The notes beneath the pieces are model-generated. The model was not told the origin of the DNA and did no database searches. It worked only from the letters and a program-made list of their open reading frames with translations. From assembly GCA_016219175.1 (NCBI GenBank), contig JACRCD010000067.1, forward strand, positions 1-61,954: a stretch of 61,954 nt of DNA, read 5' to 3'. The stretch's first letter is position 1. The number at the start of each line of letters is the position of its first letter. Positions 955 through 54,933 of the stretch are shown here, one piece after another. The stretch is from Deltaproteobacteria bacterium (GTDB lineage Bacteria; Desulfobacterota; Desulfobulbia; Desulfobulbales; SURF-16). The translations under genes and the position numbers were made by a program.

Positions 955-1062
955 ACTGTAGCACCCTCATTGCTGCCGATTTCCGCAGACTGGTGTCGGT
1001 TAAGCCCCATGCGGGGATGTGTGCATGCGATGAAATAAATAATTTCATGCGCTGGCAACTTC

Positions 1063-2901: not shown

Positions 2902-2997
2902 AGCCGCTCCGTATGTTTGATCCGAAGAATTTCATTGTTTTCTTAATTACCATAGTGGAGTTTTGTTAGATAATTGTTATGATTTTGCTAGAAATTT

Positions 2998-3320
2998 GTG
3001 ATTCCCACCCTCTCCGGCACTTACCTCAACAACATCCCCCTGACGACCATGCAGGGAAAACCGTGGTTCGTTGACGCCTCACCGTCCGGCCTGACCCAGG
3101 CCCAGACGGCCACAGCCACACGGAATACGCCGTGGTCAGCCGCGATGCGGTCAACCTTCCGGTTTACCAGATGCTTTCCGACTATCAGGAGCGCATTACC
3201 CTTATGGCTGGATCTTCGAGCCGACCAGCGGCGACGGCTGGGGCTTCCAGACAGCGGAAGGCAAGCAGTCTCCGGCCGCCCTGGTAATGGAGGTGCAAGG
3301 AGCGCCTCTGGCGCAATAAA
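2998..3320 (+). pseudogene. Decayed gene remnant with two frame changes
   Basis: Three protein-like segments follow each other in three frames: a first ending near 3110 (...GKPWFVDASPSG), a second near 3105-3200 (GHSHTEYAVVSRD, NLPVYQMLSDYQERIT), and a third from about 3208 (YGWIFEPTSGDGWGFQT) to a TAA at 3318-3320 after GAPLAQ. A strong hairpin follows 11 bases later, as expected at the end of a real gene. I do not recognise the family. Inference: a gene fragment with two small indels and no intact start. Alternatives are sequencing frameshifts in a short real gene, or chance. Confidence 0.4.
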
Positions 3321-3330
3321 CAAGCAGCAA

Positions 3331-3361
3331 AACGGGCAGACGCTGATGACGTCTGCCCGTT
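3331..3361 (+). terminator. Hairpin terminator
   Basis: A perfect 12-bp stem (AACGGGCAGACG / CGTCTGCCCGTT) with a 7-base loop lies just behind the decayed gene. The downstream tail (GTCCTATTC) is only moderately T-rich. It separates that remnant from the glycan cassette; the 200 bases from 3362 to 3562 hold nothing else I can support. Confidence 0.6.
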
Positions 3362-3562
3362 GTCCTATTCAATCTCCTTCAGAAAAACCCGCCGGAAGAA
3401 CCCTTCCTTCTTCCCCCTCCCAGCTCGCCCTGTAAAACAGATTACTCATTAAATCATAACTGAAACCAAACAATAATTGATTAATGAATCAGGGAACTGC
3501 AAACGCATGGCTTGAAAGCCAGGCAGAGAACATCTTATCAACATTATTCGTGGAAGATCGAC

Positions 3563-5368
3563 ATGCCAAGCCCAACCCTGAGACAATCCCCGCGCAGCCG
3601 CCTGCTGCCCGGCGAGCCCGAGACCCTGGCGTGGGCCGGTATCCCGCCTTCCTTTTCCCTCACCCTTTCCGGCTCAGAGCGGCTGGCCGCGGTTCTTCCC
3701 TGGCTTGCCGGTCCGCTCCTGTTCGGTTTGTTTGCCCTTTGTCTCGGGCAGGATGCCAACTGGGATCTACGCAATTATCACTTGTACAACCCCTATGCCT
3801 TTCTGCACCAGCGGCTTGACTATGATGCGGTCCCGGCCCAGGTGGCAAATTTCTATAATCCGCTGCTCTATATCCCTTATTATTTCGCGGTAACGAGCCT
3901 GCCGCCGCTTGTTGTCGCCTTTTTGCTCGGCGCGGCGCAGGGCCTTAATCTCCCGCTGCTCATCAACATTGCCCGTAACGCCATGGGGCGGGAAAAGAGC
4001 AGGGACTGGTGGCTTTATTTTCTCATTGCCCTGGTTGGTCTGCTGGGCGCAGGCAACATCTCGGAACTGGGCACCATGTTTGCCGATAATCTGGTCAGTC
4101 TGCTGGTGCTGGCCGGGATCTGGCTGCTGCTGGCCCATTACCGGCTGCTGACAACAGGCAGGCTCCGCCAGGGCTTGCTGGTGGCCGGGGCGGGTGGTCT
4201 GCTCTTCGGCCTGGCCGCCGGCCTCAAACAGCCGGCTGCAACTTTTGCCGTAGGCTGGTGCGCGGCTTTTCTGGTTTTGCCTGTACCGCCGCGGCGGCGC
4301 ATCGGCCTGGCCTTTTTTTTCGGCCTGGGGGTGCTGGGTGGCATCGCCGTTGGCGGCGGCTACTGGATGTATGAACTCTGGACCCGGTACGGCAATCCTC
4401 TTTTCCCCTATTTCAACCAATTTTTTGCCTCACCCATGGCCTCCATGGCCGATTACCGGGACGCTCGCTTTCTGCCCCGCAACCTTTGGGAAACATTGTT
4501 CTTTCCCTTTGTCATCGCCTGGGACCCGCGGCACACGGCGGAAATTCCTTTTCGCGACCTGCGCTTTCCGCTTTTTGCGGTTCTGCTGGCTGTGGCAGGA
4601 CTTGTTGCCCTGTACAAACGTTTAATGCGAACAAATAACCATGACGTCATGCCGGGCAAGCAAAGCGCAACCCGGAATCCATTGTTATTCTTGATTTCGG
4701 CGGCTCCCGGTCCCCATGCCGTTTCCGCTCCGCGTAAAAGGCTCTTCCTGCTCTGCGGCGCCTTGGTTGCCTATGCGGCCTGGCTGCGTCTGTTTGGCAT
4801 TTACCGCTACCTGCTGCCCCTTGAGATGCTGGCGCCATTGGGTATCTGGCTGCTCATCGCCGCTTTTCCCTGGCAAAAGGTCACAAAATATTGGCTGGCC
4901 CTGTGCTGCGCGCTGCTGCTTTTGGTCACTCTGCAGCCCGGCAACTGGGGGCGGGTCTCCTGGGGAGGCGATTTTTTCGGCGTTCATCCCCCACCCCTTG
5001 CCGATCCAGACCACACCATGGTGCTCATGACCGGCCTGGCCCCTTTGTCCTATGTCATCCCTTTTTTTCCGGAGCAAGTACGATTTGTTCGTATCCAAAG
5101 CTATTTCACCGAGCCGGTGGCTGGGGCCAACGGTTTTAATCTGCGCATGCAACAGCTGGTAGCCAACCATCAGGGGCCGCTCTACGTTCTCTATCATTTT
5201 GATGAAAAGGAGCAAGCAACTACCGCCCTGCGTGCCTACGGGCTTGACATTGATGGTGGGGATTGCCGCGAACTTAGCCCCCATATCGAGGAACAGCTCG
5301 ATGCTCCGCTCTCCTTTTGCGCCGCGAAACGCACCGATTCTTTCAACACCAGAGGTGAAAACAGATGA
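3563..5368 (+). CDS. Multi-pass membrane protein, probable GT-C-type glycosyltransferase
   Basis: About 601 residues with roughly ten hydrophobic helices. The N-terminal part carries an early-loop acidic motif, QDANWDLRNYHLYNPY, after the first helix; an Asp/Glu in this loop is the usual catalytic residue of GT-C enzymes that use polyprenyl-phosphate sugars. Start: an upstream in-frame ATG exists at 3512, but 3563 has GAAG at good spacing. The stop overlaps the next gene by 4 bases, so the three genes to 6769 form an operon. Known: serotype-converting cassettes pair gtrA and gtrB with a third, variable membrane transferase. Inference: this is that third protein, adding a sugar to O-antigen or another surface glycan on the periplasmic side. 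The acceptor and sugar are unknown. Confidence 0.7.
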   Translation: MPSPTLRQSPRSRLLPGEPETLAWAGIPPSFSLTLSGSERLAAVLPWLAGPLLFGLFALCLGQDANWDLRNYHLYNPYAFLHQRLDYDAVPAQVANFYNPLLYIPYYFAVTSLPPLVVAFLLGAAQGLNLPLLINIARNAMGREKSRDWWLYFLIALVGLLGAGNISELGTMFADNLVSLLVLAGIWLLLAHYRLLTTGRLRQGLLVAGAGGLLFGLAAGLKQPAATFAVGWCAAFLVLPVPPRRRIGLAFFFGLGVLGGIAVGGGYWMYELWTRYGNPLFPYFNQFFASPMASMADYRDARFLPRNLWETLFFPFVIAWDPRHTAEIPFRDLRFPLFAVLLAVAGLVALYKRLMRTNNHDVMPGKQSATRNPLLFLISAAPGPHAVSAPRKRLFLLCGALVAYAAWLRLFGIYRYLLPLEMLAPLGIWLLIAAFPWQKVTKYWLALCCALLLLVTLQPGNWGRVSWGGDFFGVHPPPLADPDHTMVLMTGLAPLSYVIPFFPEQVRFVRIQSYFTEPVAGANGFNLRMQQLVANHQGPLYVLYHFDEKEQATTALRAYGLDIDGGDCRELSPHIEEQLDAPLSFCAAKRTDSFNTRGENR

Positions 5369-6318
5369 TGCAGGCTCCTTGTATCCCTTTTCCCCAACGC
5401 ATTGCCGTTCTCGTGCCCTGCTACAATGAGGAGAAAACCGTGGTCCAGGTGGTGCGGGATTTCCACGCCGTGCTGCCAGGGGCGGCAATCTATGTCTATG
5501 ACAATAATTCCACCGACCATACCGCCCTCCGGGCCAGGGAAGCAGGGGCCATTGTCAGATCCGAAAGGCGCCAGGGCAAGGGCAACGTCATGCGCCGCAT
5601 GTTTTCGGACATCGAGGCCGATATCTATGTGCTGGTTGACGGGGATAACACCTATCATGCCGAGAGCGCGCCGGTGATGATTTCCAGATTGCTTGACGAG
5701 CAGCTGGACATGGTGGTCGGCTCACGGCTCACGGCCCATGACCAGGCCGCCTTTCGCCGCGGCCATCATCTGGGCAACCGGCTGCTGACCGGCTTTGTCG
5801 CGCTGCTGTTCGGCCGCAGTCTGACCGATATGCTGTCCGGCTACCGGGTCATGTCCCGCCGTTTTGTCAAGTCCTTCCCGGCCCTGGCCAAAGGGTTTGA
5901 AACCGAAACCGAACTTACCGTGCATGCCCTGGAGCTGCGGATGCCGACGGCCGAGGTCATCACGCCCTACGGCAACAGACCGGCCGAATCGGAAAGCAAA
6001 CTGCATACCTACCGGGACGGCTTTCGCATCCTGCTCACCATTATCCATCTTTTCAAGGCGGAACGGCCCCTGGCCTTCTTTGCCATCCTCTTTGCGCTGC
6101 TGGCCGCCATCTCCCTGGGTCTGGCCGTGCCGATCATTCTCACCTATGCGGCTACCGGCCTGGTGCCCCGTTTTCCCACCGCCATCCTGGCCACCGGCAT
6201 CATGTTGCTCGCCTTTCTCAGCCTGGTCTGCGGGCTGATTCTGGACACCGTCACCCATGGCCGCAGGGAAATGAAGCGCTTAAATTACCTTGCCATTGCC
6301 GCGTCCGGCCATGATTGA
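5365..6318 (+). CDS. Family 2 polyprenyl-phosphate glycosyltransferase (GtrB-like)
   Basis: 317 residues. Seen: an N-terminal GT-A fold with AVLVPCYNEE at about residues 13-22, a DNNSTD nucleotide-binding motif near 49-54 and a DGDN metal-binding motif near 90. Two C-terminal membrane helices follow (about 235-260 and 270-295). Known: GtrB and DPM1-type enzymes move a sugar from a nucleotide sugar to undecaprenyl phosphate on the cytoplasmic face. It overlaps the upstream gene by 4 bases and the gtrA-like gene by 8 bases, which implies coupled translation. Inference: it supplies the lipid-linked sugar that GtrA flips and the upstream membrane transferase uses. Confidence 0.9.
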   Translation: MMQAPCIPFPQRIAVLVPCYNEEKTVVQVVRDFHAVLPGAAIYVYDNNSTDHTALRAREAGAIVRSERRQGKGNVMRRMFSDIEADIYVLVDGDNTYHAESAPVMISRLLDEQLDMVVGSRLTAHDQAAFRRGHHLGNRLLTGFVALLFGRSLTDMLSGYRVMSRRFVKSFPALAKGFETETELTVHALELRMPTAEVITPYGNRPAESESKLHTYRDGFRILLTIIHLFKAERPLAFFAILFALLAAISLGLAVPIILTYAATGLVPRFPTAILATGIMLLAFLSLVCGLILDTVTHGRREMKRLNYLAIAASGHD

Positions 6319-6769
6319 CCGCCTCCTGGCCCATAATCTGCTCCCGGAATTCTGCAAATTCTGTCTGGCGGGCACGGTGGGCTTCGTGGCGGATGCCGGC
6401 AGCCTGCAGCTGCTGGTCAATGCCGGCGGCCTGAACCCGTACCTGAGCCGTCTTTTTTCCTATCTCTTTGCCGCCACCATCACCTGGTGGCTCAACCGGC
6501 GCTTTACCTTTGCCGCCTGCAACGGCGTCTGCTGGCAGGGGCAGTGGCTCCGTTATCTGGCGGTCAATGCAGCCGGAGGCGGGGTGAATTACGGGATCTA
6601 CGCCCTGGCCGTCTTTCTGTCCGGGTTTGTCCGCCATCATCTCTATCTGGGAGTGGCGGCCGGCTCGGTAGTAGGCCTGGCTGTCAATTTTACCGCCTCG
6701 CGCCTTCTGGTTTTCAGAAGGGGGCGCGACTCTGAATCCGGTGATTGGAAAAGCAAGCGCCAGGAATAA
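6311..6769 (+). CDS. GtrA-family membrane protein (probable lipid-linked sugar flippase)
   Basis: About 152 residues with four membrane helices typical of the GtrA family: FCLAGTVGFVADAG near the start, WWLNRRFTF after helix 2, and a C-terminal NFTASRLLVFRRG. Known: GtrA proteins are thought to flip undecaprenyl-phosphate-sugar across the inner membrane. Start: ATG at 6311, overlapping the stop of the preceding gene by 8 bases. TTG codons further upstream are less likely starts. It is the last gene of the cassette; no clear terminator follows in 6770-7028. Confidence 0.88.
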   Translation: MIDRLLAHNLLPEFCKFCLAGTVGFVADAGSLQLLVNAGGLNPYLSRLFSYLFAATITWWLNRRFTFAACNGVCWQGQWLRYLAVNAAGGGVNYGIYALAVFLSGFVRHHLYLGVAAGSVVGLAVNFTASRLLVFRRGRDSESGDWKSKRQE

Positions 6770-7028
6770 ATCACGGCTGCAATGGCCAACTACTCACAGA
6801 AATCCTTTGTTTGCGGTAGTCACAAAAAATATGGATTTTGGGAAGTTTCAGCAGAAGATGCGGGCCATGAAACCGATTTGGGCCATTTTGGTTATTTCCA
6901 AATACGATTCCATGCCGCGCTGTAATTTTATGAAAACATACCGCCGAAATCACTGACGACACCAAGAAAAATCGGGCTGCGCAGTGATCCCGGCGGGAGA
7001 ATTTAATAGTAACGGGACAGAAATGTCC

Positions 7029-8087
7029 TTATTTCGCGGGGGCGGCCATCGGCTTAAGCTCCTTGATGTCCTTCAGCAGTTTCGTTCTCTCGTCTTTTGA
7101 CATGGGAATCATGCCTTTGTCGGCCAGATAGCCGTCATTGCCCCAGGCCTTATCGCTGGTGAATTCATCAACGAATTCCTTGATGCCGGGGATTTCGCCC
7201 ACATGGGCTTTTTTGACATAGAAAAAGAGCGGACGGGAAACCGGGTATTTGCCGGAGGCGATATTGTCAAAGTTAGGGGATTCATTTTCCACAGTGGAGC
7301 CCTGGATCTTGTCAGCATTCTGATCAAGGAAACTGAACCCGAAGATGCCGAAGGCGTTGGGGTTCGCCTCAAGTTTCTGCACGATCAGGTTGTCGTTCTC
7401 GCCGGCCTCGACGTAAGCCCCATCCTCACGCACCGTCTGGGTAGTGGCCTTGTACTTGTCTTTGTCCTTTTTCTCCATGTCATGGATGAAACTGAAGGTC
7501 TTTGCCCCGGATTCCATGGCCAGCTCAACAAAAGCATCCCTGGTGCCGGAGGTGGGGGGAGGTCCCAGCACCTCGATTTTTGTGGCGGGAAGGGCGGGAT
7601 TCACCTCCTTCCAGGTCTTATAAGGGTTTGCCACCAGGGTTTCTCCGCCCTTGGGGTCAGGGACGTTTTTGGCCAGGGCCAGGAAGATATCTTTACGGCT
7701 CACCTGCATGGGGGCGCTTTTCTTGGCATTGGCAAGCACAATTCCATCATAGCCTATTTTGACTTCCACAATATCTTTAACACCGTTTGTCTGGCAGGTC
7801 TCGAATTCGGATTTCTTGATGGCCCGCGATGCGTTGCTGATATCAGGTGAATCAACTCCTACGCCTGAGCAGAAGAGTTTGAAACCGCCGCCGGTGCCGG
7901 TGGATTCAATTTTAGGGGTCTTAAAGTTGGAGCCTTTGCCGAACTGTTCGGCCACAACGGTGGAAAACGGATAGACCGTTGAAGAGCCGACGATGCTGAT
8001 GGTGTCACGGCCGGCAGCCTGCGCGGACGAAAAATTGAACACACCTGCCATGAGTGCCGCCGTCAACAGAATACTTTTTTTCTTCAC
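7029..8087 (-). CDS. pstS: Phosphate ABC transporter periplasmic binding protein PstS
   Basis: 352 residues. Seen: a signal peptide (MKKKSILLTAALMAG... cleaved after about residue 24, SAQAA), then ISIVGSSTVYPFSTVVAEQF, the classic phosphate-contact loop, followed by STGTGGG and SNASRAI. Known: PstS captures phosphate for PstCAB. The start is a GTG at 8087 with AAGGAG 8 bases upstream. It is divergent from phoB across 281 bases. Odd: no pstC, pstA, pstB or phoU follows, although these normally adjoin pstS; the next gene downstream on this strand is more than 4 kb away. The transporter core is either elsewhere or lost from this locus. Confidence 0.95.
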   Translation of the reverse strand: MKKKSILLTAALMAGVFNFSSAQAAGRDTISIVGSSTVYPFSTVVAEQFGKGSNFKTPKIESTGTGGGFKLFCSGVGVDSPDISNASRAIKKSEFETCQTNGVKDIVEVKIGYDGIVLANAKKSAPMQVSRKDIFLALAKNVPDPKGGETLVANPYKTWKEVNPALPATKIEVLGPPPTSGTRDAFVELAMESGAKTFSFIHDMEKKDKDKYKATTQTVREDGAYVEAGENDNLIVQKLEANPNAFGIFGFSFLDQNADKIQGSTVENESPNFDNIASGKYPVSRPLFFYVKKAHVGEIPGIKEFVDEFTSDKAWGNDGYLADKGMIPMSKDERTKLLKDIKELKPMAAPAK

Positions 8088-8368
8088 GAGAGTTCTCCTT
8101 GATAAAAGAAATTAATAACAATAACTACCAGTTGATTTCAAAACGTTGTCGTAAGAAAAGCGCTGTAACGCGTATCATTTGTAAGCTAAATTACGGGAGG
8201 GATGTTTTGGTTGGATTAGGAGATTATTAAGATTGCGTTAGATGGGTGAATTAAGCTTGCAGGACGGAATTATTAGCATAAAGTGAAGAAAAAAGAGGTC
8301 ATTTCAAACACCCTTTCCTTATCTGTTATGCTGATGGTTTTCCAAAGTTATTGTTCAAGAGGAGCCAT

Positions 8369-9067
8369 ATGGGTAAAGCCAACATACTCATTGTCGAAGA
8401 TGAAGAAGATATCCAGCAGCTGGTCAGCTACAACCTGATCAAGGCCGGTTTCCATGTCGTATGCGCCGATACGGGGGAAGAAGGACTGCAGAAGTTACAG
8501 GCCGGAGGCATTGACTGCATCCTGCTTGATCTGATGCTGCCCGGCATTGACGGTCTTGAAGTCTGCCGCGCCATTAAAAAAAACGAAGACAGTAAATCCA
8601 TACCGGTCCTGATCCTGACCGCAAAAGGCGAAGAGGATCATGTCGTTTCCGGTCTTGATTGCGGGGCGGATGACTATGTAACCAAACCTTTCAGCCCAAA
8701 GGTTCTGATTGCCAGAGTAAAAACCCTGCTGCGCCGCAGGGCGGAACAGGCTGTCGATTCTTCAGCCAAAAAAAAGGAGAAAATCATTATCCGCGGGTTG
8801 GAGATTCATCTTGGCCGCCACGAGGTGAAGTTAAACGGAGAACCCTTGCAGCTGACCATGAGCGAATTCGGGATTCTGGTGCTGCTGGCCGGCAAACCAG
8901 GATGGGTTTATACCCGGCAGCAGATAATCGATGCGGTGAGGGGCTATGACTTTCTTGTCACGCCGAGGGCCATTGATGTGCAGATCTTCGGGCTCCGTAA
9001 AAAAATGGGGGATGAGGGCACCAATATTGAAACGGTGCGCGGCGTCGGCTATCGCTTCAAGGTATGA
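8369..9067 (+). CDS. phoB: PhoB-type phosphate response regulator
   Basis: 232 residues. Seen: a receiver domain with acidic pocket VEDEED at about 9-14, phosphoacceptor D54 in LLDLMLPG, T/S switch in LTAKG, Lys in TKPF, then an OmpR-type winged helix (LTMSEFGILVLLAG, TPRAIDVQIFGLRKKMG, VRGVGYRF). Start: ATG at 8369 behind AAGAGGAG; a TTG at 8351 is less likely. Known: PhoB activates phosphate-starvation genes after phosphorylation by PhoR. Context: pstS lies upstream on the opposite strand, and the gene just downstream begins like phoR but is broken after 18 codons, so its cognate kinase is missing here. Confidence 0.93.
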   Translation: MGKANILIVEDEEDIQQLVSYNLIKAGFHVVCADTGEEGLQKLQAGGIDCILLDLMLPGIDGLEVCRAIKKNEDSKSIPVLILTAKGEEDHVVSGLDCGADDYVTKPFSPKVLIARVKTLLRRRAEQAVDSSAKKKEKIIIRGLEIHLGRHEVKLNGEPLQLTMSEFGILVLLAGKPGWVYTRQQIIDAVRGYDFLVTPRAIDVQIFGLRKKMGDEGTNIETVRGVGYRFKV

Positions 9068-9076
9068 GCGGCATCC

Positions 9077-9145
9077 ATGCATAACAGGAAATTAATCTGG
9101 CGGATTTTCCCCGCCAATCTGGCCATTACCCATCACCGTGCTTGA
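9077..9145 (+). pseudogene. phoR remnant: first ~18 codons only
   Basis: ATG at 9077, 10 bases after the phoB stop, encodes MHNRKLIWRIFPANLAIT, which matches the characteristic N-terminus of PhoR-type kinases (cytoplasmic head plus beginning of the first membrane helix). Directly after this the DNA becomes phoH-like in another frame, and the phoR frame stops at 9143-9145. The rest of the kinase (membrane helices, PAS, HisKA, ATPase) is absent. Inference: a deletion joined phoR to phoH; see the phoH fragment. The identification rests on a short stretch plus its position behind phoB. Confidence 0.65.
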
Positions 9146-9974
9146 AGAACTCGACCACTTCAAGAAAGGGAACGACGCGCTTAATTTTCACGCCCGCCAG
9201 TTCACCCATCTGCTTGATGACCTGAGCGGTGACAAGCTTTTTAACGGCGGCGTTCCCATAACACCAGGTCTCGGAAATATCAGCGTCAAAATGGAGGAAG
9301 ATTTTGACCCGGAGCTGTTGCGCATTTTCCCGGAGGGCAAACCGGATCATAGAATTCTCAATATTGCCTTCAGGCTTTCCAAGAATAACAGGAAACGGCA
9401 GGTGATCTTCGTCTCCAAGGATGTCAATCTGCGCATGAAGGCAATTTCTCTGGGGTTGGTTGCTGAAGATTACAAAAACGACCATGTTAAGGATCTTGGC
9501 GCCTTGTATAAGGGCTACCGGCGTATTGAGCCGGTCCCTGAATCTCTCATCGATCACCTTTTTACCGAAAGCAGCTCTTTGCAGAGCACCGAATTGGGCA
9601 AGGAGCCGGATATCCAGCCCAATGAATTCCTGGTCCTGAGAAACGGAAAACGTTCGGCCCTCGGCTTTCTAGATGCAACAGACGGGACAATTCGGAGAAT
9701 CGACAAGCAGATCTGTTATGGCATCACCCCTCGAAACGTCGAGCAGACTTTTGCCCTGGCCGCCTTGCTTAACCCGAACATTGAGCTGGTCACGATAACC
9801 GGCAAGGCAGGCATCGGCAAAACACTGCTGGCCCTGGCAGCGGCCCTGCACAGCCGCAAAAAGTATCGCCAGATATTCATGGCTCGCCCGGTGGTGCCGC
9901 TCAGTTACGCCCATATCAACCTGGAAAAAGGTGAACGATCCCGCCTGGCGGACCTGGCCGGTACACTTCTTTGA
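9138..9974 (+). pseudogene. PIN-PhoH family ATPase fragment, both ends missing
   Basis: Seen: from about 9129 the frame reads PITVLEELDHFKKGND, text from the middle of the PIN domain of PIN-PhoH proteins, and continues through VSKDVNLRMKA to the start of the PhoH ATPase with a Walker A loop GKAGIGKT near residue 220 and MARPVVPLS. Known: intact relatives are about 440 residues, begin with an LDTNV strand carrying the first catalytic Asp, and have a Walker B DEAQN motif. Both are missing. After PVVPLS (about 9905) the protein changes to an unrelated tail ending at 9974. In another frame the same DNA reads SVTPISTWKKVNDPAWRTWP and on to a TAA at 10041, possibly the 3' end of a third gene. A start codon exists (GTG 9138), but a functional product is unlikely. 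Confidence 0.75.
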
Positions 9975-10052
9975 TGTATTTGCAAAGCATCCCTCCTGCC
10001 ATTATCCGCATAACCAGCCGAAAAAATACAATCGATTATAAGGAGAATATAC

Positions 10053-11225
10053 ATGCCCCCGGCTGCAGTTGACCCAAGGGAAAAAGATATCATTGCAGAG
10101 CCGCTGAATCCGGCTAGAATTCTCATCGTCGAGGACGAGGAGGATCTGGCCGAACTCATTGACTTTCGCCTCAAAAATGAGAGGTACCACACCCAGATCG
10201 CCACCACCGGCAGGCAGGCCTGCGGAATGGCGGAATCATTTCAGCCCGACTGCATATTGCTTGATATCATGCTGCCGGAAATGGATGGGTGGCAGGTCTG
10301 CCGGTTTATCCGTGATCATCTGGACCCCATGCTGTCCTCGACGCCGATTATTATGCTGACCGCCCTTGGGGACCAGGACGCCAAAATCAAGGGGCTTGAA
10401 CTCGGCGCCAACAGTTACATCGCCAAACCCTACTCCATCAAGGAAGTATTGATTATCTGCGCCAAATTGATCACTGAGCGCCGCAAGCATATGCAACTGC
10501 AAAATGAGATATTCAGGCTGCAGAGTGAAAACCGTACCTCGTTTGACCTGCAGAGTCTGCTCTGTCATGAACTGAAAAACCATCTTTCCTTCATTCAGGG
10601 CTTCTGCTCCCGGCTCCGGAAATCAACCGAGGATATCCTCCCTGATAATGATAAGAAATATCTCGGACTGATCGATAGAAGCGCCTCCTACCTGCTAAAC
10701 ATCTCTGAAGAAGTGCTTCTCATCCGCCAGGTTGAAACCGGGGACTTCAACCTCAGAAGAAGGCCCTTCAATTTGAAAAACTCCCTGGATGAGGTGATGA
10801 GACTCTATGAACAGGTCGCGGCATCCAAAAGAATCACCATCCTCTCGCGGTATCCGGCAATCGAAACAGTTGATCTTAATCGTGGCGCATTCAAGCTTAT
10901 TCTCTCCAGCTTGATGGAAAATGCGGTCAAATACAGTTCTCCCGAGACCGAGATCAGGTGTACCGTTGACCTCTTTGGTTCGGGACGGGATCTTGTTCTC
11001 AGGGTCGAGGACCAGGGCGCCGGCATCCCTCTGGAGGAGCAGGCGAAGGTCTTTGACAAATACTACCGGGGCAAGAAACACCGTGAGTCAACCAAGGGGA
11101 CAGGAATTGGTCTGTACGCGGTAAAAGTACTGAGCGAATCGCTGCAGGGGTTGGTGGAGCTGAAGAGTGAGGAAGGGCGGGGAAGCAGTTTCACGGTTTA
11201 TTTGCCTCTCTCGGCAGAGCGGTGA
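10053..11225 (+). CDS. Soluble receiver-histidine kinase hybrid
   Basis: 390 residues without membrane helices. Seen: an N-terminal receiver domain (VEDEED at 27-32, phosphoacceptor D71 in LLDIMLPEMDG, Lys in AKPYS), a helical linker, a dimerisation/phosphotransfer helix with H172 in LLCHELKNHLSF, and an ATPase with N-box MENAVKY, DQGAGIP, GTGIGLYAVK and a final GSSFTVYLP. Known: such REC-first kinases are controlled by an upstream kinase rather than by their own sensor. AAGGAG lies 8 bases before the ATG. Context: it sits just behind the phoB/phoR'/phoH' scar, where a phosphate kinase would be expected, but nothing in it indicates phosphate sensing. Its last 28 bases overlap the convergent gene at 11198. 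Confidence 0.9.
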   Translation: MPPAAVDPREKDIIAEPLNPARILIVEDEEDLAELIDFRLKNERYHTQIATTGRQACGMAESFQPDCILLDIMLPEMDGWQVCRFIRDHLDPMLSSTPIIMLTALGDQDAKIKGLELGANSYIAKPYSIKEVLIICAKLITERRKHMQLQNEIFRLQSENRTSFDLQSLLCHELKNHLSFIQGFCSRLRKSTEDILPDNDKKYLGLIDRSASYLLNISEEVLLIRQVETGDFNLRRRPFNLKNSLDEVMRLYEQVAASKRITILSRYPAIETVDLNRGAFKLILSSLMENAVKYSSPETEIRCTVDLFGSGRDLVLRVEDQGAGIPLEEQAKVFDKYYRGKKHRESTKGTGIGLYAVKVLSESLQGLVELKSEEGRGSSFTVYLPLSAER

Positions 11226-12697
11226 CCGGTATGAACTTTTCTTTCCACAGCCTGGAAAATCATAGAGCAGTGGTTATGGCGCGTCTTTGACTCCCTCGTT
11301 TTTACCGCTTTTTGCCGCCAGCATACCGCTGTCATGCAGACCACCAGGGTGGCAAGCCACGCGAGGCGGCTCTGATAGCGATCGTGGGGATTGGAGAGGG
11401 CGCCGCAGATAAAAGCATTCCCAAGCAGGGCCGTTAACGTGAAAAACGCTAACCCGGCAAGATCATGACGACTGGCGCGCAGACCCCAGCCGGCAACCAA
11501 TAGTAACCCCAGCAGGGACAGATAGGCGACCGGAACATGCACTTTGTTCAAGGCGTTAAACAACGGCTGGGTGATTTGGTTTTGCTGCTGGCGGGCAGCG
11601 TTGAACGCTTCGGCCGTACGGGGGAGGACCCGGGAGAAGACATCCCGCGCCGCAGGCTGATATTCATCCAAGCCATCTCCGGTTGCCACCCTTGTCATTT
11701 GTTGGGCTGTGGCGCGCAAGGAAGTCCAGACAAAGGCGCCGGGATAGGTTTTGATGCACTCCTTTACCAGATAATTTAATTCAGCATCGGCTGTCCCGCT
11801 CCACCCGCCGATGTCCTGAAACGGTGAATTGGCGGCCCAGAGGAAATCATCGGCTGTTTTGGGGAGACGCGCTTGCAGATTGCACAGTTTGATGCCGGGG
11901 GCAGGGCAATGATCGGCCAGCCAGCGCTGGGCAATGCCATCCTGCACTAATCGCCCGAAAATAAACACAGGGCCTCCCGGAGTATATGTCGCCTCACCTG
12001 CCAGGGCCAGATGCAGCATCGGCATTAAAAGCAGGCTCGAAGCAACCACCGCCAGCGGTGGCAGGATAAACACGGTTAGCGGCCACTTTTGCCTGCGTTG
12101 GGCAACCCATGCGATGAGGATGACTAGGCTCAGCCCGATTGCCAGCGCCATGCTGGACATATGCGAGAGCAGCCCCAGCAGAAGCAGGGCCGTCAGTCCC
12201 GCACGCTCGCTTCTGCCCAGTTTTTCCCAGCGGAAACCCAGAAGCCATAGGGAGAGAACCACGAGTGACGCCAGGGCATCGGGCATTAATTGGCTGGTGT
12301 ACCAGGAAATGCCGGTCAGCAATCCCAATCCGCCGCTAAAGGTTGCGGTTGCCAGCGGGCCTGCGGGCAGGTCGTGGCAACGGAGTACGAGGTGAATGAC
12401 CCATAGGGTAAAAAGTGATTGGGCCAGCACTGGTCCCCAGAAGGACAACCAGCCAATGGATGTTGCCCAGAGAAAGAGGCCATAGAAGATTGAGCGGCCC
12501 GGAGCCAGGGTCATTTCCAGCACGCGCCCCACATAACCCCCTGTATCAAAAAAAACGAGGGCAAAACCATTCCACAGGGCGGGGAAGAGAAGAACGGCGA
12601 CGCTCATTGCCAGGGAGAGCACCCAGGCGCTGCCTTGTAGTGTCGCGGAGGAGTGGGGTGATGGGGAAGAAGCGGTGGCGGTTGTGATCGGCATCAT
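11198..12697 (-). CDS. Multi-pass integral membrane protein of unknown function
   Basis: About 499 residues with roughly ten hydrophobic helices spread over the first 470 residues and a basic cytoplasmic tail. The first loop contains FFDTGGYVGR, an acidic motif in the position typical of GT-C glycosyltransferases, but I see no other diagnostic motif, so no enzyme is assigned. Start: ATG at 12697 (MMPITTA); an upstream TTG at 12739 is possible. No strong ribosome-binding site is visible (GGGGAG lies about 20 bases upstream). It is convergent with and overlaps the REC-kinase gene by 28 bases. Confidence 0.7.
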   Translation of the reverse strand: MMPITTATASSPSPHSSATLQGSAWVLSLAMSVAVLLFPALWNGFALVFFDTGGYVGRVLEMTLAPGRSIFYGLFLWATSIGWLSFWGPVLAQSLFTLWVIHLVLRCHDLPAGPLATATFSGGLGLLTGISWYTSQLMPDALASLVVLSLWLLGFRWEKLGRSERAGLTALLLLGLLSHMSSMALAIGLSLVILIAWVAQRRQKWPLTVFILPPLAVVASSLLLMPMLHLALAGEATYTPGGPVFIFGRLVQDGIAQRWLADHCPAPGIKLCNLQARLPKTADDFLWAANSPFQDIGGWSGTADAELNYLVKECIKTYPGAFVWTSLRATAQQMTRVATGDGLDEYQPAARDVFSRVLPRTAEAFNAARQQQNQITQPLFNALNKVHVPVAYLSLLGLLLVAGWGLRASRHDLAGLAFFTLTALLGNAFICGALSNPHDRYQSRLAWLATLVVCMTAVCWRQKAVKTRESKTRHNHCSMIFQAVERKVHTGHRSAERGK

Positions 12698-12988
12698 ATT
12701 TTCTTTTGGCAGGTTACTCCCCTCGAAGCGGAAAGCCAAGGGTTTTGAAAATCAGCTCGTTAGGGGGCGGGCCAGAGCGACGGCAATGATGCAAGCAGCA
12801 ACATCGCCCTGGCCCGATTGGAAGGGAAAATTACGAACTGCCCGATTCACTTCATGCCGGCAGTTGTTTTTTATTTTAAGGGCTGATTGTTTAATTTGTA
12901 TTTTGTTTTGTTCAGTATTTGATTAACCGGTTTCGCGGTGTCATCTTGATGGTTATGTATTGTAGGCGGGGCCGGCGGGCAATTCCAG
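12698..12988. other. Upstream region without recognisable gene
   Basis: Open frames here are short and lack protein character. It presumably carries the promoter of the membrane protein gene on the minus strand. I see no strong promoter, RNA or repeat before the dispersed repeat that begins near 12989. Confidence 0.4.
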
Positions 12989-13137
12989 GGATGGCTAAAT
13001 AAAAAAAATCGATATACAAGGCGTAGTGTATTTTGGAGAGCGAGGCAATACATGTGGTATGCCGAACAAACAAAAATGCGCTACAACGCAGTAGATCGGA
13101 TTTATGCCCTTCAGGGTATTTTTTACGACGCCATCAT
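12989..13137 (+). repeat. Dispersed 183-bp element, copy A, left end missing
   Basis: About 149 bases nearly identical to copies at 23777-23959 (reverse orientation) and 61815-61954. The match runs from GGATGGCTAA through GATATACAAGGCGTAGTG, ACATGTGGTATGCCGAAC, CTACAACGCAGTAGATCGG to the right end TTTTTTACGACGCCATCA. The left terminal segment of the family (TTGATGAACTCGTAAAAAG) is absent, and unrelated sequence stands in its place. Inference: a truncated non-autonomous mobile element (MITE-like). Its frames encode nothing conserved. Confidence 0.8.
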
Positions 13138-13269
13138 CTTTTGCTTCCTGTTTTTTTTCGTAGTAACGGTAAATTAATGAGTATGTAATGATTTCTTAAT
13201 GAATTGTAGTGAGAATATTTAAAAAAATAAGATAAATCATTACGTTATAAATGCCGGGAGGTTTTTGTC

Positions 13270-13479
13270 ATGTCCATAAATTGTCATGAAAATAGAGCGC
13301 TTGAAAAAGCCGCAAAATATATATGTAGAGAAAAATGCGGCTTATGTCCGATTGCTGAAAAAGATTTCGAATGCCCGGAAGAATGTAACATTTCAACGTT
13401 GCCCTGGCACTGCTGGTTTGTCTATTTCTGTAAACAGGCAACCGAGGAAGAGAATAAAAATATATCAATGGAGTATTAA
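13270..13479 (+). CDS. Small cysteine-rich protein
   Basis: 69 residues with eight cysteines: C5, C19, C23, C26, C35, C39, C48 and C54. The central pattern CxxxCxxC followed by CPxxC looks like a metal or Fe-S site. GGGAGGT stands 8 bases before the ATG, a strong ribosome-binding site for such a short frame, and the composition is unlike random translation. It stands alone, with dispersed repeat copy A upstream and a gene-free stretch downstream. No family recognised. The metal-binding role is an inference from cysteine spacing only. Confidence 0.6.
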   Translation: MSINCHENRALEKAAKYICREKCGLCPIAEKDFECPEECNISTLPWHCWFVYFCKQATEEENKNISMEY

Positions 13480-13957
13480 ATATCTATTTCTTTTTCTTTA
13501 CAAGGATGTATGTTTTTGATTATGCGATAATTTGACATTTTGTCGGCGAGGAGGAGGTCCGCCTCAGTAATTTCATCGTCAAGCACCTCTCTTCCCCACT
13601 GCCCAATGGGTGTTGAACACAACACCGCAATCCCCCTGTCCCTTGCTCAATCCATGCTGATCGTCTGAATATTTGAATATTCTCCCTCCCCTGATTTCAT
13701 TTCTTTCCCTCCGCCCCAAAAGGCAAAACCGTCCCGCTGTTTCGATGTGCTTTTCAAGGTTTATCAACTCCTAATCATTTTTTAGAAAAAAACTAAGAAG
13801 AACCTAACCTTAACAAAATATGTACCTGTTTTAAATGTAAACAACAATATGGACCTGATCCGGAGCTGTTGCGTGTAATACCTGGGAAACTGAAATGCGC
13901 GGATTGCCCATTTCCTCACCAGGTTTTCAGGGAAGACAAATAATGACAGGAGGTGGC
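13480..13957. other. Gene-free stretch
   Basis: No frame here has both a ribosome-binding site and protein-like composition. Low-complexity pyrimidine-rich runs occur near 13580-13720. The last part should hold the promoter of the phosphoesterase-glycosyltransferase pair, but I cannot place it with confidence. Confidence 0.4.
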
Positions 13958-14770
13958 ATGAAATCAATGTACTTCAGATCGATCTGGCTATCCGATGCCC
14001 ATCTTGGCTCAAGAAACGTTAACAGTTCGTATTTGTTTGAATTTCTACAGAATACAGATTCGGAATATCTCTACCTTGTTGGTGATATTATTGATTTTTG
14101 GCAGTTGAAAAAGAAGTTCTATTGGCCCCGGATTAACAACAGGATAGTGCGTAATGTGCTGCGAAAGGCCCGCTCAGGCACCAAGGTTATCTATATACCG
14201 GGTAATCATGATGATATTGTCAGGCAGTTTGTTGGTAAAAAACTCAGGGGGGTGAGTATCGCCGCGGAGGTGATACATAATACCGCGGATGGCCGCCGCT
14301 TTCTTGTCACCCATGGCGACGAATTCGACTGCGTCGTCCAGAACAACAGATGGCTCGCCGAATTGGGCAGTTTCGCCTATGAAATTCTCCTTGCCGTCAG
14401 CGCCTTGTATAACCGGCTGCGGCTCAAAATGGGGCTTTCGTACTGGTCTCTGTCCGCCTTTCTCAAGCATAAGGTTAAGGAAGCAGTTAATTTTATGGGC
14501 AGTTTTGAAAAAGTCGTTATCGCTGAAGCCTCCAGACGCAAGGTCGATGGCCTTATTTGCGGCCATATCCACTATGCCGCCATAAAACAGATGGATCACA
14601 TTACTTACAACAACATCGGCGACTGGGTTGAAAGCTGTACCGCCCTGACGGAAACCGCCGATGGCTGTCTTTCCATAATAACATGGACTGAAAAATGCGC
14701 CTTATCCACGGCAGAGGGGGAAATCTATGCGGATTGCTATCGTAACGGACGCCTGGCACCCACAAGTTAA
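13958..14770 (+). CDS. Calcineurin-like phosphoesterase, LpxH/UDP-2,3-diacylglucosamine diphosphatase type
   Basis: About 270 residues. Seen: the metallophosphoesterase motif series SDAHLG near the start, GDIIDFW, GNHDD, THGDEFD and GHIH. Known: this family (LpxH-like) hydrolyses UDP-2,3-diacylglucosamine in lipid A synthesis, but the longer, GT4-linked relatives often have unknown substrates. Start: ATG at 13958 because AGGAGGTGGC lies immediately upstream; in-frame ATGs at 13895 and 13943 precede it. It overlaps the following glycosyltransferase by 44 bases, so the two are translated together, and a role in lipid or envelope glycan synthesis is likely. Confidence 0.85.
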   Translation: MKSMYFRSIWLSDAHLGSRNVNSSYLFEFLQNTDSEYLYLVGDIIDFWQLKKKFYWPRINNRIVRNVLRKARSGTKVIYIPGNHDDIVRQFVGKKLRGVSIAAEVIHNTADGRRFLVTHGDEFDCVVQNNRWLAELGSFAYEILLAVSALYNRLRLKMGLSYWSLSAFLKHKVKEAVNFMGSFEKVVIAEASRRKVDGLICGHIHYAAIKQMDHITYNNIGDWVESCTALTETADGCLSIITWTEKCALSTAEGEIYADCYRNGRLAPTS

Positions 14771-15806
14771 CGGGGTGGTAACCACTCTGAGCAGAACAGT
14801 TGCCCTTCTGCGCGAAGCCGACCATGAAGTAATGGTTGTCAATCCCTGGATGTTCAAGACTTTCCCCTGTCCAACCTATCCTGAAATACGTTTGTCACTG
14901 TTCCCGGGACGGAAAATTAAAGAAACGCTCTCCTTTTTTGCGCCTGATGCCATACATATTGCCACCGAGGGCTTTCTTGGCTGGTCGGCCAGGGCATACT
15001 GTCTTAAAAACGGCTTACGCTTTACCACCTCATATCATACGCGTTTTCCGGAATATGTCAGATTGCGAGCGCCCATTCCCCTGTGTTTGACCTATGCCTG
15101 CATGCGCAGGTTCCACGCCAAAGCCGTAAGGACCATGGTGGCCACGGAAGATCTCAAAGAGGAACTGTCACAATATGGATTCCAGAATCTGGCCTTATGG
15201 TCCCGCGGGGTGGATACGGAAATTTTTAAACCACGGTCCAAGGATTTTCTGGAAGATAAAAGACCTATATATATGTATGTCGGCAGGGTAGCTTTGGAAA
15301 AAAATATCGAGGAATATCTGAAAGCTGACTTGAACGGGACAAAATATGTTATCGGAGATGGGCCGGCTCTGAAGGAAATGCGTACTAAGTATCCCCAGGT
15401 ACGTTTTACGGGTTACAAAAAAGGGGTGGAGCTGGCAAAGCACCTGGCGGCATCGGATGTTTTTGTTTTTCCAAGCCGGACGGATACCTTTGGTCTGGTC
15501 ATGCTCGAGGCCCTGGCCTGCGGCATTCCTGTGGCGGCTTATCCTGTTCCCGGACCGAATAACATCATCAGGCACGGGGTGACCGGCATTCTCGGCGAGG
15601 ATTTGCAAAAGGCGGCAAACGAGGCGCTGCAGCTGGACAGCAAACAGTGCCGCTCCTTTGTGGAGGAATTTTCCTGGAAAAGGTGCACCTCTCAGTTCTT
15701 CAACAACCTTTACTTTCCTGCCGCCAGAAAAAGCAGTGTCGATATTGCAAATACCGTATTGCAGATGGCACCGGCCAGGTGTGGGAAGGCGGCGGGGAGA
15801 CAGTAG
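14727..15806 (+). CDS. GT4-family glycosyltransferase
   Basis: 359 residues with a GT-B fold. Seen: MRIAIVTDAWHPQVNGVV at the N-terminus (donor loop typical of GT4 mannosyl/sulfoquinovosyl-like enzymes), an acceptor-side TSYHTRFPEY motif, YVGRVALEKN for the donor domain, and FPSRTDTFGLVMLEALACG, which contains the conserved E-x7-E region. Known: relatives include alpha-mannosyltransferases and SqdX-like glycolipid synthases, usually acting on membrane lipids at the cytoplasmic face. The 44-base overlap with the phosphoesterase gene implies a shared pathway. The exact sugar is not readable. A bidirectional hairpin follows at 15941. Confidence 0.9.
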   Translation: MRIAIVTDAWHPQVNGVVTTLSRTVALLREADHEVMVVNPWMFKTFPCPTYPEIRLSLFPGRKIKETLSFFAPDAIHIATEGFLGWSARAYCLKNGLRFTTSYHTRFPEYVRLRAPIPLCLTYACMRRFHAKAVRTMVATEDLKEELSQYGFQNLALWSRGVDTEIFKPRSKDFLEDKRPIYMYVGRVALEKNIEEYLKADLNGTKYVIGDGPALKEMRTKYPQVRFTGYKKGVELAKHLAASDVFVFPSRTDTFGLVMLEALACGIPVAAYPVPGPNNIIRHGVTGILGEDLQKAANEALQLDSKQCRSFVEEFSWKRCTSQFFNNLYFPAARKSSVDIANTVLQMAPARCGKAAGRQ

Positions 15807-15940
15807 GCTGACTGGACTTTTCCCGTTGTTCCTGCTGGATGGGATAATACGGCACGCGCGGAATAACCGCATTGTTCAGACGTAAATGCCAGAGAAGGCG
15901 AAAGGTAGCCCGGCGGCAACCATATAAATTGTGATTACCA

Positions 15941-15977
15941 CGAAATAACCCTCGTCTGAAAGGCGAGGGTTATTTCG
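15941..15977. terminator. Bidirectional hairpin terminator
   Basis: A perfect 14-bp stem (CGAAATAACCCTCG / CGAGGGTTATTTCG) with a 9-base loop. It lies between the convergent glycosyltransferase (+) and PHP lipoprotein (-) genes, and A/T-rich stem ends give U-rich 3' tails on both strands. Confidence 0.75.
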
Positions 15978-15984
15978 TCTATAA

Positions 15985-16123
15985 CACGAGGCTCTTGCAG
16001 AATAAGCAAAAGAGTGCCTCCTGTCATTTCGACCGAAGGGAGAAATCTAATGAAATCATGGCAATTACAGATTCCTCACTGCGCTCGGAATGACACACAC
16101 GTTCATTTTGCAAGAGCCTCACA
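15985..16123. repeat. 139-bp palindromic element with terminal inverted repeats
   Basis: The ends read GAGGCTCTTGCA (15988-15999) and TGCAAGAGCCTC (16109-16120). Inside, TGTCATTTCGACCGAAGG near 16022 pairs imperfectly with CTGCGCTCGGAATGACA near 16080. Known: segments of this kind (TGTCATTTCGACC... CTCGGAATGACA) recur between genes in many bacterial genomes. Here it fills the gap between two convergent genes. No coding capacity. A MITE-like or REP-like element is inferred. Confidence 0.7.
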
Positions 16124-16134
16124 CTTAAGGTTTG

Positions 16135-17775
16135 TCAATTCCTAACCCGGACAAAAACCGGGTTTGAGTAGAACCAGAGATCGGCATAGGCCTTGGCCGC
16201 CGTGTTCGGCGCCAGGAGGTCGTCGCTCAAGGGGTTGCCCTGCGGGTCGGTCTCATTGGCCACCCCACGGCCGAGATTGGTGCCGCGCAGACGGAAATAC
16301 ATGTCGTGCGTTGGCCGGCCCAGGTGGTGGTTGATGGTCCGCCAGCCATCTTCGCCCCCTCCTTCACGCTTGTCCTGCCAGTCCTTTGCGGTAAAGGTGG
16401 TCACTACCCTGGTGGTTTCGTTGCTGTCCTTGCCGTAGTCCGGGTTCGGCGTCCTGCCGTCCTCAAGATATCTGGCCGCCTTGCCCCTCACTTCCCCCGC
16501 GATCAGATCGATATGATCCACACCCACCGCCTCTCCGTTGTTGTTTTTTGCCGGACTCCGGAAGCGGATGGTCAACTGCGCGTCGCAATCCGCGCCGGCA
16601 TCAAGAACTCCACCCATCTCCACCCTCTCTGGCTCCCGCTCCACGGGGGCATCCCTGTCCGTCACGGCTTGAGGCAGGCATCGGGCCGTAAACTGCAATC
16701 CGTCGATCAGATCGCCATGCACAATGAAGGAATTCCCGGAGCGCAGGCCAGTCAGCAGTTCGTCAAAATGATAATTTCCGTCATGGTCTTTATCCCATGT
16801 AAAGGTATAAATCTTGGCATATTCGCCGGGCCAGAAGTCGTTTGTCGTGCTGTGAAAATCGGAATTAACAAAGGCGAAGAAGCGGCGCCCCTCGCCGAGC
16901 AGGGCGTCCCATGGGCCGCCGACCTTGGCCAGCATAAAATCCGCGCCCCCGAATGTGCGGGCTCTGAAGGTTACATCCTGACCCGAACTGTCCTGGAAGG
17001 GGCCGCCGTTATAACCGCCGCGTCCCGCTGCCTTCTGGTGGCCGGGGATGCCTTCAAAACCGAAGGCCACGCCGGGGGCCGCGTTGTTGAAGTCGCGGAT
17101 GGCGGCGATGGGGTATTTCAGCTTACGGGAGGGGTGGTTGATGAGAAAATAACTGCTCTCAGGGTAGTTTTCAGCCAGCCATTTGACGCCGGCCACTGCC
17201 TTGTCGTGACTGTTCTCCGTGTTTTTTAATCCCACGAAGAGCTGGCTGTTGGCCGCGATGCCGGCATCATTTTCGTCAAACAGATACTCGTGCCGGGCAA
17301 TGGCCAGACCGCCTTCCTCCGCGGGCCCAAGGATGGCGACGCTGGCATGGTCATGGGCCGGCACATTCCATTCATACCCCTGGGCAATAAGTTTGTCCGG
17401 TCTGGCCAACCGCGTCTTGGCAACGATCGGGAAGGAATAGCGCCACAGCGACTGCCAACGCCACATCGTGCCTGCCGGCGGGTCGCCAGCCCGCACGGTG
17501 CCGACAGGCCAGGGATGCCCATCGGGGTTGCGGGCAAATGATCCGCCATGCTCTGAGTTGGTGATCCAGTCGAGACCGAACCAGAAACCATGGTCCAAGA
17601 CCTCGGCCGGGGTATGGCTGCCGTCGGTTAGAAAGGTGTGGTTGTGAAAATCCCCTGCCAGCCAGCGTCCGGTGTCCGGCTTGTCCGGCTTCTGCATCTG
17701 ACATCCGGCTAGAACGAGCCACAGAACCCCGGCTTCAGCCAGGGTCACCAGGGTTTTGATAAGGTATTTCCGCAT
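16135..17775 (-). CDS. PHP-domain phosphoesterase lipoprotein
   Basis: About 546 residues. Seen: a lipoprotein signal with lipobox LAGC (Cys at about residue 25), then DFHNHTFLTDGSHTP and TNSEHGG, the first metal-binding motifs of the PHP (polymerase and histidinol phosphatase) family; later His/Asp clusters NHPSRK and NSDFHST fit the same active site. Known: PHP enzymes hydrolyse phosphoesters using metal ions. The export signal implies a periplasmic or outer-membrane location. Start: ATG at 17775, with CTGGAG 9 bases upstream. It is divergent from the exported 5'-nucleotidase gene (193-base gap), so both may serve phosphate or nucleotide scavenging. The substrate is unknown. Confidence 0.8.
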   Translation of the reverse strand: MRKYLIKTLVTLAEAGVLWLVLAGCQMQKPDKPDTGRWLAGDFHNHTFLTDGSHTPAEVLDHGFWFGLDWITNSEHGGSFARNPDGHPWPVGTVRAGDPPAGTMWRWQSLWRYSFPIVAKTRLARPDKLIAQGYEWNVPAHDHASVAILGPAEEGGLAIARHEYLFDENDAGIAANSQLFVGLKNTENSHDKAVAGVKWLAENYPESSYFLINHPSRKLKYPIAAIRDFNNAAPGVAFGFEGIPGHQKAAGRGGYNGGPFQDSSGQDVTFRARTFGGADFMLAKVGGPWDALLGEGRRFFAFVNSDFHSTTNDFWPGEYAKIYTFTWDKDHDGNYHFDELLTGLRSGNSFIVHGDLIDGLQFTARCLPQAVTDRDAPVEREPERVEMGGVLDAGADCDAQLTIRFRSPAKNNNGEAVGVDHIDLIAGEVRGKAARYLEDGRTPNPDYGKDSNETTRVVTTFTAKDWQDKREGGGEDGWRTINHHLGRPTHDMYFRLRGTNLGRGVANETDPQGNPLSDDLLAPNTAAKAYADLWFYSNPVFVRVRN

Positions 17776-18008
17776 TGATTGCATCTCCAGACGGCAGGGG
17801 TTCGAAAACAGCATTCGAACGAGACAGATCGGACTTTTAACGACAACATCAACAATAGCACATTATTTTCACATTGGGCCACTTGAAACCTTTTATTAAT
17901 CAATCTTTAACCGCGGACTAACATTCTTCTCCCATAAATAAAGCAGTGGATACCACGATTGAGAAAAGACGACTGAAGAAAAAATGAGTTTTACAGACGG
18001 AGGATGTT

Positions 18009-23695: not shown

Positions 23696-23776
23696 CCAAT
23701 GAACGCCCGCGAGCGCATTTTTCACTGACCCCCGGTAAATTTGACACTGTCTGGGAATAACGATACATTATTAAAA

Positions 23777-52162: not shown

Positions 52163-52237
52163 CGCACGTTTCGCTCCCCTGTGCCGGCATAATGATCAAT
52201 ATTGTCCTGGAAGTAAAGAACCACGGAGTCTGAGCGT

Positions 52238-53227: not shown

Positions 53228-53243
53228 CCGAGGAGGGAGGTCG

Positions 53244-54929: not shown

Positions 54930-54933
54930 TACA

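What the first reader, a model, noticed from the sequence alone, without database searches (positions are those of the whole stretch)
9077..10041. phoR-phoH deletion scar behind phoB
Seen: 18 codons that look like the start of phoR join, within about 10 bases (9121-9131), to the middle of a PIN-PhoH gene in another frame; after PVVPLS (about 9905) the phoH text stops and a third, unidentified coding-like segment (SVTPISTWKKVNDPAWRTWP) runs to a TAA at 10041. Three gene pieces therefore lie head to tail without the missing parts. The join region has GCCATTACC next to CCCATCACC, which could be microhomology. If real, phoB has lost its own kinase and the cell has lost a PhoH at this locus.
Basis: partly seen in the sequence, partly recalled or inferred. 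Interest (0 to 1): 0.65.

Follow-up and report, generated by a model that had tools for sequence, protein, structure and literature searches.

The report
Phosphate-sensing operon split across two loci
A bacterium related to Desulfurivibrio seems to have carried two copies of its phosphate-sensing gene cluster and then lost the sensor gene from one copy and its partner regulator from the other, so that two genes that sit side by side in its closest relatives now survive as complementary halves.

Summary
The join at 9131 is present as described: 18 phoR codons run into codon ~36 of a PIN-PhoH gene. The join near 9905 is real too, but there is no third gene. Read in the phoH frame, the tail is the PhoH C-terminus, so phoH has an in-frame 127-codon deletion. 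'phoB lost its kinase' holds only locally. Contig C65 of the same genome carries a second copy with pstB-pstS-pstA-pstC-phoU and an intact 614-aa phoR. There phoB is the lost gene, reduced to a frameshifted 93-bp stub. The window copy keeps pstS, the promoter block and phoB. In 5 of 5 same-genus genomes phoR directly follows phoB. The pstS copies differ at dS 0.13, dN/dS 0.21. Best reading: two copies of the locus, then complementary deletions, leaving a split but complete PhoBR system. phoH' is probably dead; two other PhoH-family genes remain. A known kind of event.

The parts
6824..6890 (+). scrap of the 3' end of yqeY (left end of the copied pho segment)
   Evidence: 84% match to C65:43049-43116 (L006 5050-5117), the 3' end of yqeY there
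6890..8163 (-). pstS copy (CDS 7029-8087) with flanks; pstB is missing at its left (at most 75 bp of the longest pstB frame left), pstA-pstC-phoU at its right (39 bp of pstA left)
   Evidence: 92% match to C65:44051-45326; PF12849; dS 0.134, dN/dS 0.21 against the C65 copy; edge lengths
8173..8299 (.). conserved promoter block between pstS and phoB, with two TTA[AG]-type sites 11 bp apart (candidate PhoB box)
   Evidence: 84% match to C65:48695-48819; the 11-bp pair is present in 8 of 9 aligned loci
8369..9067 (+). phoB, intact; the only phoB match found in the genome
   Evidence: PF00072 and PF00486 full length; 82-84% identical to PhoB of 4 same-genus genomes; one match in G000 at E<=1e-40, 137 of 159 candidates scored
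9077..9145 (+). phoR remnant: 18 phoR codons, then 4 read-on codons and TGA
   Evidence: 9060-9131 matches C65 at 93% up to 9131, the last 43 bases exactly; translation; intact phoR of 614 aa at C65:48920-50764
9129..9974 (+). PIN-PhoH pseudogene: lacks about 35 N-terminal codons and 127 internal codons (join at 9905/9906); frame open from GTG 9138 to TGA 9972-9974
   Evidence: alignment to the intact 442-aa G040 protein; in 50 of 51 other genomes of the order with this gene the open frame is 420 aa or more
10053..11225 (+). REC-HisKA-HATPase hybrid kinase behind the phoH remnant; not part of the pho segment
   Evidence: Pfam; best relative 44% identical

Best explanation
The genome once held two copies of the locus yqeY-pstB-pstS-pstA-pstC-phoU|phoB-phoR. 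The left side of C65 is the ancestral place; the window holds the second copy, lying in front of a PIN-PhoH gene. The copies then decayed in complementary ways. In the window, deletions removed pstB, pstA-pstC-phoU, and phoR together with the start of phoH; a further in-frame deletion gutted phoH. At C65 a deletion removed most of phoB, joining the promoter block to a 3' stub of phoB and to phoR. The result is a split but complete PhoBR-Pst system: pstS and phoB diverge from the promoter block in the window, phoU-pst and phoR flank the same block at C65. PhoR from C65 would phosphorylate PhoB from C40 in trans. Shown: two copies, gene content, junctions as assembled, one phoB and one phoR found, purifying selection on pstS. 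Inferred: duplication as origin, order of events, working promoters, signalling in trans. Resting on the assembly alone: which right half belongs to which left half across the 43 identical bases at 9131.
For: Four collinear pieces of the window (6824-6890, 6890-8163, 8173-8299, 8975-9131) match C65 at 84-92%, same order and orientation. Against C65 the window lacks nearly all of pstB and pstA, and all of pstC and phoU; against the window C65 lacks phoB but for 93 bp. The unbroken order is present in 4 of 5 same-genus genomes (G005 is cut inside phoR by its contig end); G002 is cut after pstA but has phoU|phoB-phoR; phoR follows phoB in 5 of 5. On the left the synteny runs on: C65:30287-50764 is collinear with G001, G003 and G005 over 22 genes, phoB and pstS counted. 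G000 gave one phoR at E<=1e-60 (61 of 186 candidates scored) and one phoB at E<=1e-40. The C65 phoB stub decays: two extra A in a run, VRGVG changed to ARGAG. The promoter block is kept in both copies. The pstS pair is a clade with support 1.000.
Against: No reads; 97 contigs; no second assembly of the species. A 43-base exact match to C65 ends at 9131, so a mis-resolved graph there could have swapped the right halves. Synteny does not settle it: in relatives the genes right of phoR match neither C40-right nor C65-right, save a PhoH 13.6 kb behind phoR in G001; the block right of phoR on C65 lies on other contigs than the pho locus in G001, G003, G004, G005 and G011, and on C65 a dispersed repeat sits exactly between phoR and that block. 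Duplication cannot be told from import of a near-identical locus. How the copy reached phoH is unexplained.
Confidence: 0.73

Rival explanations
1. Contig swap: at the 43 identical bases before 9131 the assembler joined the wrong halves (or the cells recombined there recently). The true loci would be pstS-phoB-phoR (compact, partners together) and pst operon-phoB stub-phoR'-phoH'. Two partial copies remain, but phoBR is not split.
For: The exact match is 43 bases and ends at the join. A PhoH of this type lies on the right of the ancestral locus in G001, 13.6 kb behind phoR, and beside phoB in G013 and G029.
Against: 43 bases is shorter than ordinary short reads and than the final k-mer of common assemblers (recalled), so reads should bridge it. 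The G001 PhoH is on the other strand and not of the same clade as phoH'.
Confidence: 0.11
2. Import: the second copy came from a close sister species by horizontal transfer, and the native phoB was lost afterwards.
For: phoH' groups with G040 of another family (support 0.999), not with the same-genus PhoH, so foreign DNA at this place is plausible. pstS dS 0.134 fits a sister species as well as a duplication.
Against: No donor was found among the genomes searched. GC of the genes is ordinary, 0.52-0.53.
Confidence: 0.1
3. Chimera: C40 and C65 belong to two strains or species binned together.
For: Draft genome; reads unavailable; the copies differ by 8%. Composition does not help: C65 is nearest to the window (distance 0.086), but G001 and G003 loci (0.109, 0.105) are nearer than C38 and C1 of the same genome (0.167, 0.175).
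Against: Contamination 0.14%. C40 and C65 share a dispersed repeat at 85-96% identity, though I did not test whether sister species have it. Each strain would have to lack the other's gene.
Confidence: 0.05
4. One reading: a one-locus deletion scar that left the cell without a PhoB kinase, three gene pieces head to tail.
For: phoR' and phoH' are truncated here.
Against: Intact phoR at C65; the third piece is the phoH C-terminus.
Confidence: 0.01

Closest known systems
PhoB-PhoR / Pst-PhoU locus of the same-genus genomes G001-G005 (four of them are records titled Proteobacteria bacterium, Desulfurivibrio sp. SURF_16 and Desulfobulbaceae bacterium)
   Same: same genes and orientation, same conserved promoter block, PhoB 82-84% identical
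   Different: there phoB and phoR are adjacent at one locus; here each locus keeps one of them
Duplication followed by reciprocal loss (duplication-degeneration-complementation; recalled, best known from yeast and plants)
   Same: two copies, complementary losses, one gene (pstS) kept in both under constraint
   Different: at the level of one bacterial operon, with deletion junctions still readable
PhoH2 (PIN-PhoH, NF053827)
   Same: phoH' aligns to it over residues 1-255
   Different: lacks the PIN N-terminus and the part with VDEAQN
G011 (same family): second pstS set divergently beside phoB
   Same: a pstS lies divergently next to phoB, as in the window
   Different: an independent pstS pair; phoR stays next to phoB

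Membership tests
PhoB (TIGR02154) | receiver plus winged-helix domains, full length | tested here: met
   PF00072 and PF00486 full length; aligns without truncation to 5 relatives
PhoB (TIGR02154) | score above NCBIfam cut-off 296.2 bits | tested here: not met
   219.5 bits; the G001 homologue beside phoU and phoR also scores only 221.2; the name rests on synteny
PhoR (TIGR02966), C65 copy | score above cut-off 334.2 bits | tested here: not met
   307 bits; PnpS model 397.3 against a cut-off of 400; the G001 homologue 296 bits; the name rests on synteny with phoB and pst in relatives
PhoR, window remnant | HisKA and HATPase domains | tested here: not met
   only 18 codons remain
Pst transporter, C65 | PstB, PstA, PstC, PhoU above NCBIfam cut-offs | tested here: met
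   403.3/343.2, 212.5/193.45, 286.1/196.45, 197.1/130.25 bits
PstS, window copy | substrate-binding protein of the Pst system | tested here: inconclusive
   PF12849 E 3.3e-49, but TIGR02136 156.7 bits against a cut-off of 206.6
PhoH2 (PIN-PhoH) | complete PIN domain and complete PhoH ATPase core | tested here: not met
   PIN_4 from position 28, PhoH only to 61 of 205; 127 residues including VDEAQN missing
Pho box | PhoB binding in vitro | not testable with these tools
   only conserved sites with 11-bp spacing were seen

The most novel reading that the evidence does not exclude
The split is adaptive rather than neutral. The window keeps a compact pstS-promoter-phoB module that raises the dose of binding protein and response regulator apart from PhoR, and the open 278-aa phoH' frame, 70 bp behind phoB and overlapping the end of the phoR' frame (GTG at 9138, TGA at 9143), is still made under phosphate control with a new, non-catalytic role.
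Probability: 0.08. Interest if true: 0.55.

Novelty: new member of a known kind. Interest (0 to 1): 0.33.

Why it matters
If the linkage holds, it is a readable case of how a cognate kinase-regulator pair becomes unlinked in a bacterium: copy the locus, then delete one partner from each copy while both keep the shared promoter. In G008, G009 and G013 the best phoB and phoR matches also lie on different contigs (I looked at the neighbourhood only in G013), so separation as such is not new; the scar that tells how is. It also shows how a broken copy in one window can look like loss of a pathway when the rest of the genome holds the missing half.

Tried and rejected
Lost kinase: rejected, phoR is intact at C65. 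Third gene after PVVPLS: rejected. A third fragment of the locus elsewhere: searched with the 19.9-kb C65 stretch; among the listed matches (40 of 223 candidates scored) only itself, the dispersed repeats and the four C40 pieces. RNA element: no Rfam hit in window 1-30000. Synteny test of the contig swap: 22 genes left of and through phoR at C65 are collinear in G001, G003 and G005. The three genes left of the window copy (3512-6769) lie together in G001, G002 and G005, and the block right of phoR at C65 lies together in G001, G003, G004, G005 and G011, away from the pho locus. No fetched relative joins C40-left with C40-right or with C65-right, so the test did not decide. phoH' as orthologue of the same-genus PhoH: first favoured because the gene 13895-14770 lies near this PhoH type in 5 of 30 loci, then weakened because phoH' groups with G040 and gene order differs. 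Recurrent phoB-phoH linkage: 2 of 30 phoH loci have a phoB at 50% identity or better (G013, G029). The 30 are the ten best other genomes plus 20 picked by hand, out of the 51 other genomes; several are short contigs, so neighbours may be missed. Constraint on phoH': 5 deviations at 67 columns invariant in the other 30, against 0-3 (of 67-70) for each of the others: mildly relaxed, not decisive. The deleted-column count printed (0) is an alignment artefact and was not used; the 127 comes. Papers: seven searches, listings shown 15 of 113, 15 of 21, 6 of 6, 10 of 79, 6 of 20, 8 of 33 and 0 of 0 (one search was about PhoH2). Nothing listed describes such a split of phoBR, by title and start of abstract. 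Of one paper (PMC4136832) two passages were seen and do not bear on it; no other paper was opened.

Full report
What is there. phoB (8369-9067) is intact. Behind it a phoR start (ATG 9077) gives 18 phoR codons and then runs into the PIN-PhoH stretch, meeting TGA at 9143-9145. The phoH frame is open from a GTG at 9138 to TGA at 9972-9974. Pfam sees PIN_4 from profile position 28 and PhoH only to position 61 of 205. The C-terminal parts of intact relatives match it at 69-78% (G040, G027, G054). The alignment with the 442-aa G040 protein shows residues 294-420 cleanly missing and about the first 35 residues absent. The lost parts hold LDTN of the PIN domain and VDEAQN of the ATPase (that these are catalytic is recalled), so the product is most likely inactive. 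Among the 51 other genomes of the order with this gene at E<=1e-80, 50 have open frames of 420 aa or more; the exception (G097) lies at a contig end.

The missing half. Searching the window's own genome with 9060-10060 found, besides itself, one match: 9060-9131 at C65 with 93% identity. With window 1-20000, three pieces match C65 besides dispersed repeats: 6890-8163, 8173-8299 and 8975-9131; a fourth, 6824-6890, appears. C65 carries, in order, yqeY, pstB, pstS, pstA, pstC, phoU and, facing away, phoR of 614 aa. In place of phoB it has the promoter block joined to the last 93 bp of phoB, with two extra A in a run of A and VRGVG changed to ARGAG. The window copy lacks pstB (at most 75 bp of its longest frame left), pstA (39 bp left), pstC, phoU and phoR; the C65 copy lacks phoB. 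One phoR (E<=1e-60) and one phoB (E<=1e-40) were found in the genome, with 61 of 186 and 137 of 159 candidates scored.

Ancestral state. In 4 of 5 same-genus genomes (G001, G003, G004, G005) the order yqeY pstB pstS pstA pstC phoU | phoB phoR stands at one place; in G005 the contig ends inside phoR. In the fifth, G002, a contig end cuts the locus inside pstA, but phoU|phoB-phoR is there. The synteny on the left runs on: C65:30287-50764 is collinear with G001, G003 and G005 over 22 genes. So the left side of C65 is the ancestral place. The right side is not: the genes that follow phoR at C65 lie together in G001, G003, G004, G005 and G011, but on other contigs than the pho locus, and a dispersed repeat sits at C65:50762-50939, right at the phoR stop. 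Separation of phoB and phoR is not unique: in G008, G009 and G013 the best matches lie on different contigs.

Age and selection. The two pstS copies form a clade (support 1.000), with dS 0.134 and dN/dS 0.21; to G001 dS is 1.2-1.3, and G001 to G003 is 0.24. The copy is therefore younger than the split from the sampled genus members, and the pair as a whole shows purifying selection. G011 has its own pstS pair.

Regulation. Between pstS and phoB the window keeps a block of 127 bp, 84% identical to the block between phoU and the phoB stub at C65. Its core has two TTA[AG]-type sites 11 bp apart in 8 of 9 aligned loci: window, C65 and six of seven relatives, not G011. It is a candidate PhoB box by spacing; binding is inferred. 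The deletions on both copies stop short of this block.

Joins, and what they do not show. At the phoR/phoH join phoR reads GCCATTACCC and the G040 phoH reads GCCATTCCC, consistent with a deletion at short similarity; the true parents are not available. On re-checking I found that the last 43 bases before 9131 are identical to C65 and that identity stops exactly at the join. Homology between two copies must end at a deletion edge, so this is expected; but it also means that a mis-resolved assembly graph could have exchanged the right halves. The true loci would then be pstS-phoB-phoR and pst operon-stub-phoR'-phoH', with phoBR still together. Shared exact stretches of 70 bases or more also exist inside pstS, where a swap would move other linkages. 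Gene order in relatives did not decide: no fetched relative joins C40-left with C40-right or with C65-right, and the one hint, a PhoH 13.6 kb behind phoR in G001, leans slightly towards the swap.

PhoH status of the cell. Two other PhoH-family genes are present: C1:4883-5494 (open frame 349 aa) and C38 (open frame 491 aa). The C38 protein matches NF053827 from end to end, with 300.7 bits against a cut-off of 680; the intact G040 protein scores 274.8, so the cut-off is not informative here. phoH' groups with G040 of another family, not with the same-genus PhoH, so its origin may be foreign.

Limits. No reads, no second assembly, 97 contigs. Contamination is 0.14% and both contigs carry the same dispersed repeat. 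Composition does not discriminate: loci of G001 and G003 are nearer to the window than C38 and C1 of its own genome. Duplication against import is open. Function in trans is expected from ordinary PhoB-PhoR biochemistry (recalled) but untested.

Verdict. Observation partly confirmed, interpretation partly supported. The likeliest truth is a PhoBR system split by complementary deletions between two copies of its locus: tidy and instructive, but a known kind of event, and dependent on one assembly.

Noticed in passing
window 12989-13141, 23770-23959, 61813-61953; L006 12763-12942, 15331-15520: Dispersed ~150-180-bp repeat with dozens of listed matches in the genome, on both strands (MITE-like); several contigs begin or end in it, and one copy starts right at the phoR stop on C65. 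No Rfam match within window 1-30000.
   Followed up: partly
C65:50764-51131 (L006 12765-13132): Behind phoR the ancestral gene order breaks at a copy of the dispersed repeat: the following block (51131-57197 and on) lies on other contigs than the pho locus in G001, G003, G004, G005 and G011. Repeat-mediated rearrangement or a misjoin at the repeat.
   Followed up: partly
window 15984-16123: A second dispersed ~140-bp repeat that folds into a strong hairpin (-51 kcal/mol).
   Followed up: no
window 10053-11225: REC-HisKA-HATPase kinase with no close relative in the 57 other related genomes searched (best 44%, G018), standing on the side of phoB where phoR is in relatives.
   Followed up: partly
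L068 (G013) 5593-8124; L069 (G029) 5687-8679; G001:C165:84683-85480: PIN-PhoH genes of the same type lie next to phoB without an adjacent phoR in 2 of 30 phoH loci, and 13.6 kb behind phoR in G001.
   Followed up: partly
L096 (G011) 9131-10174: Extra pstS placed divergently beside phoB, an independent pstS pair.
   Followed up: partly
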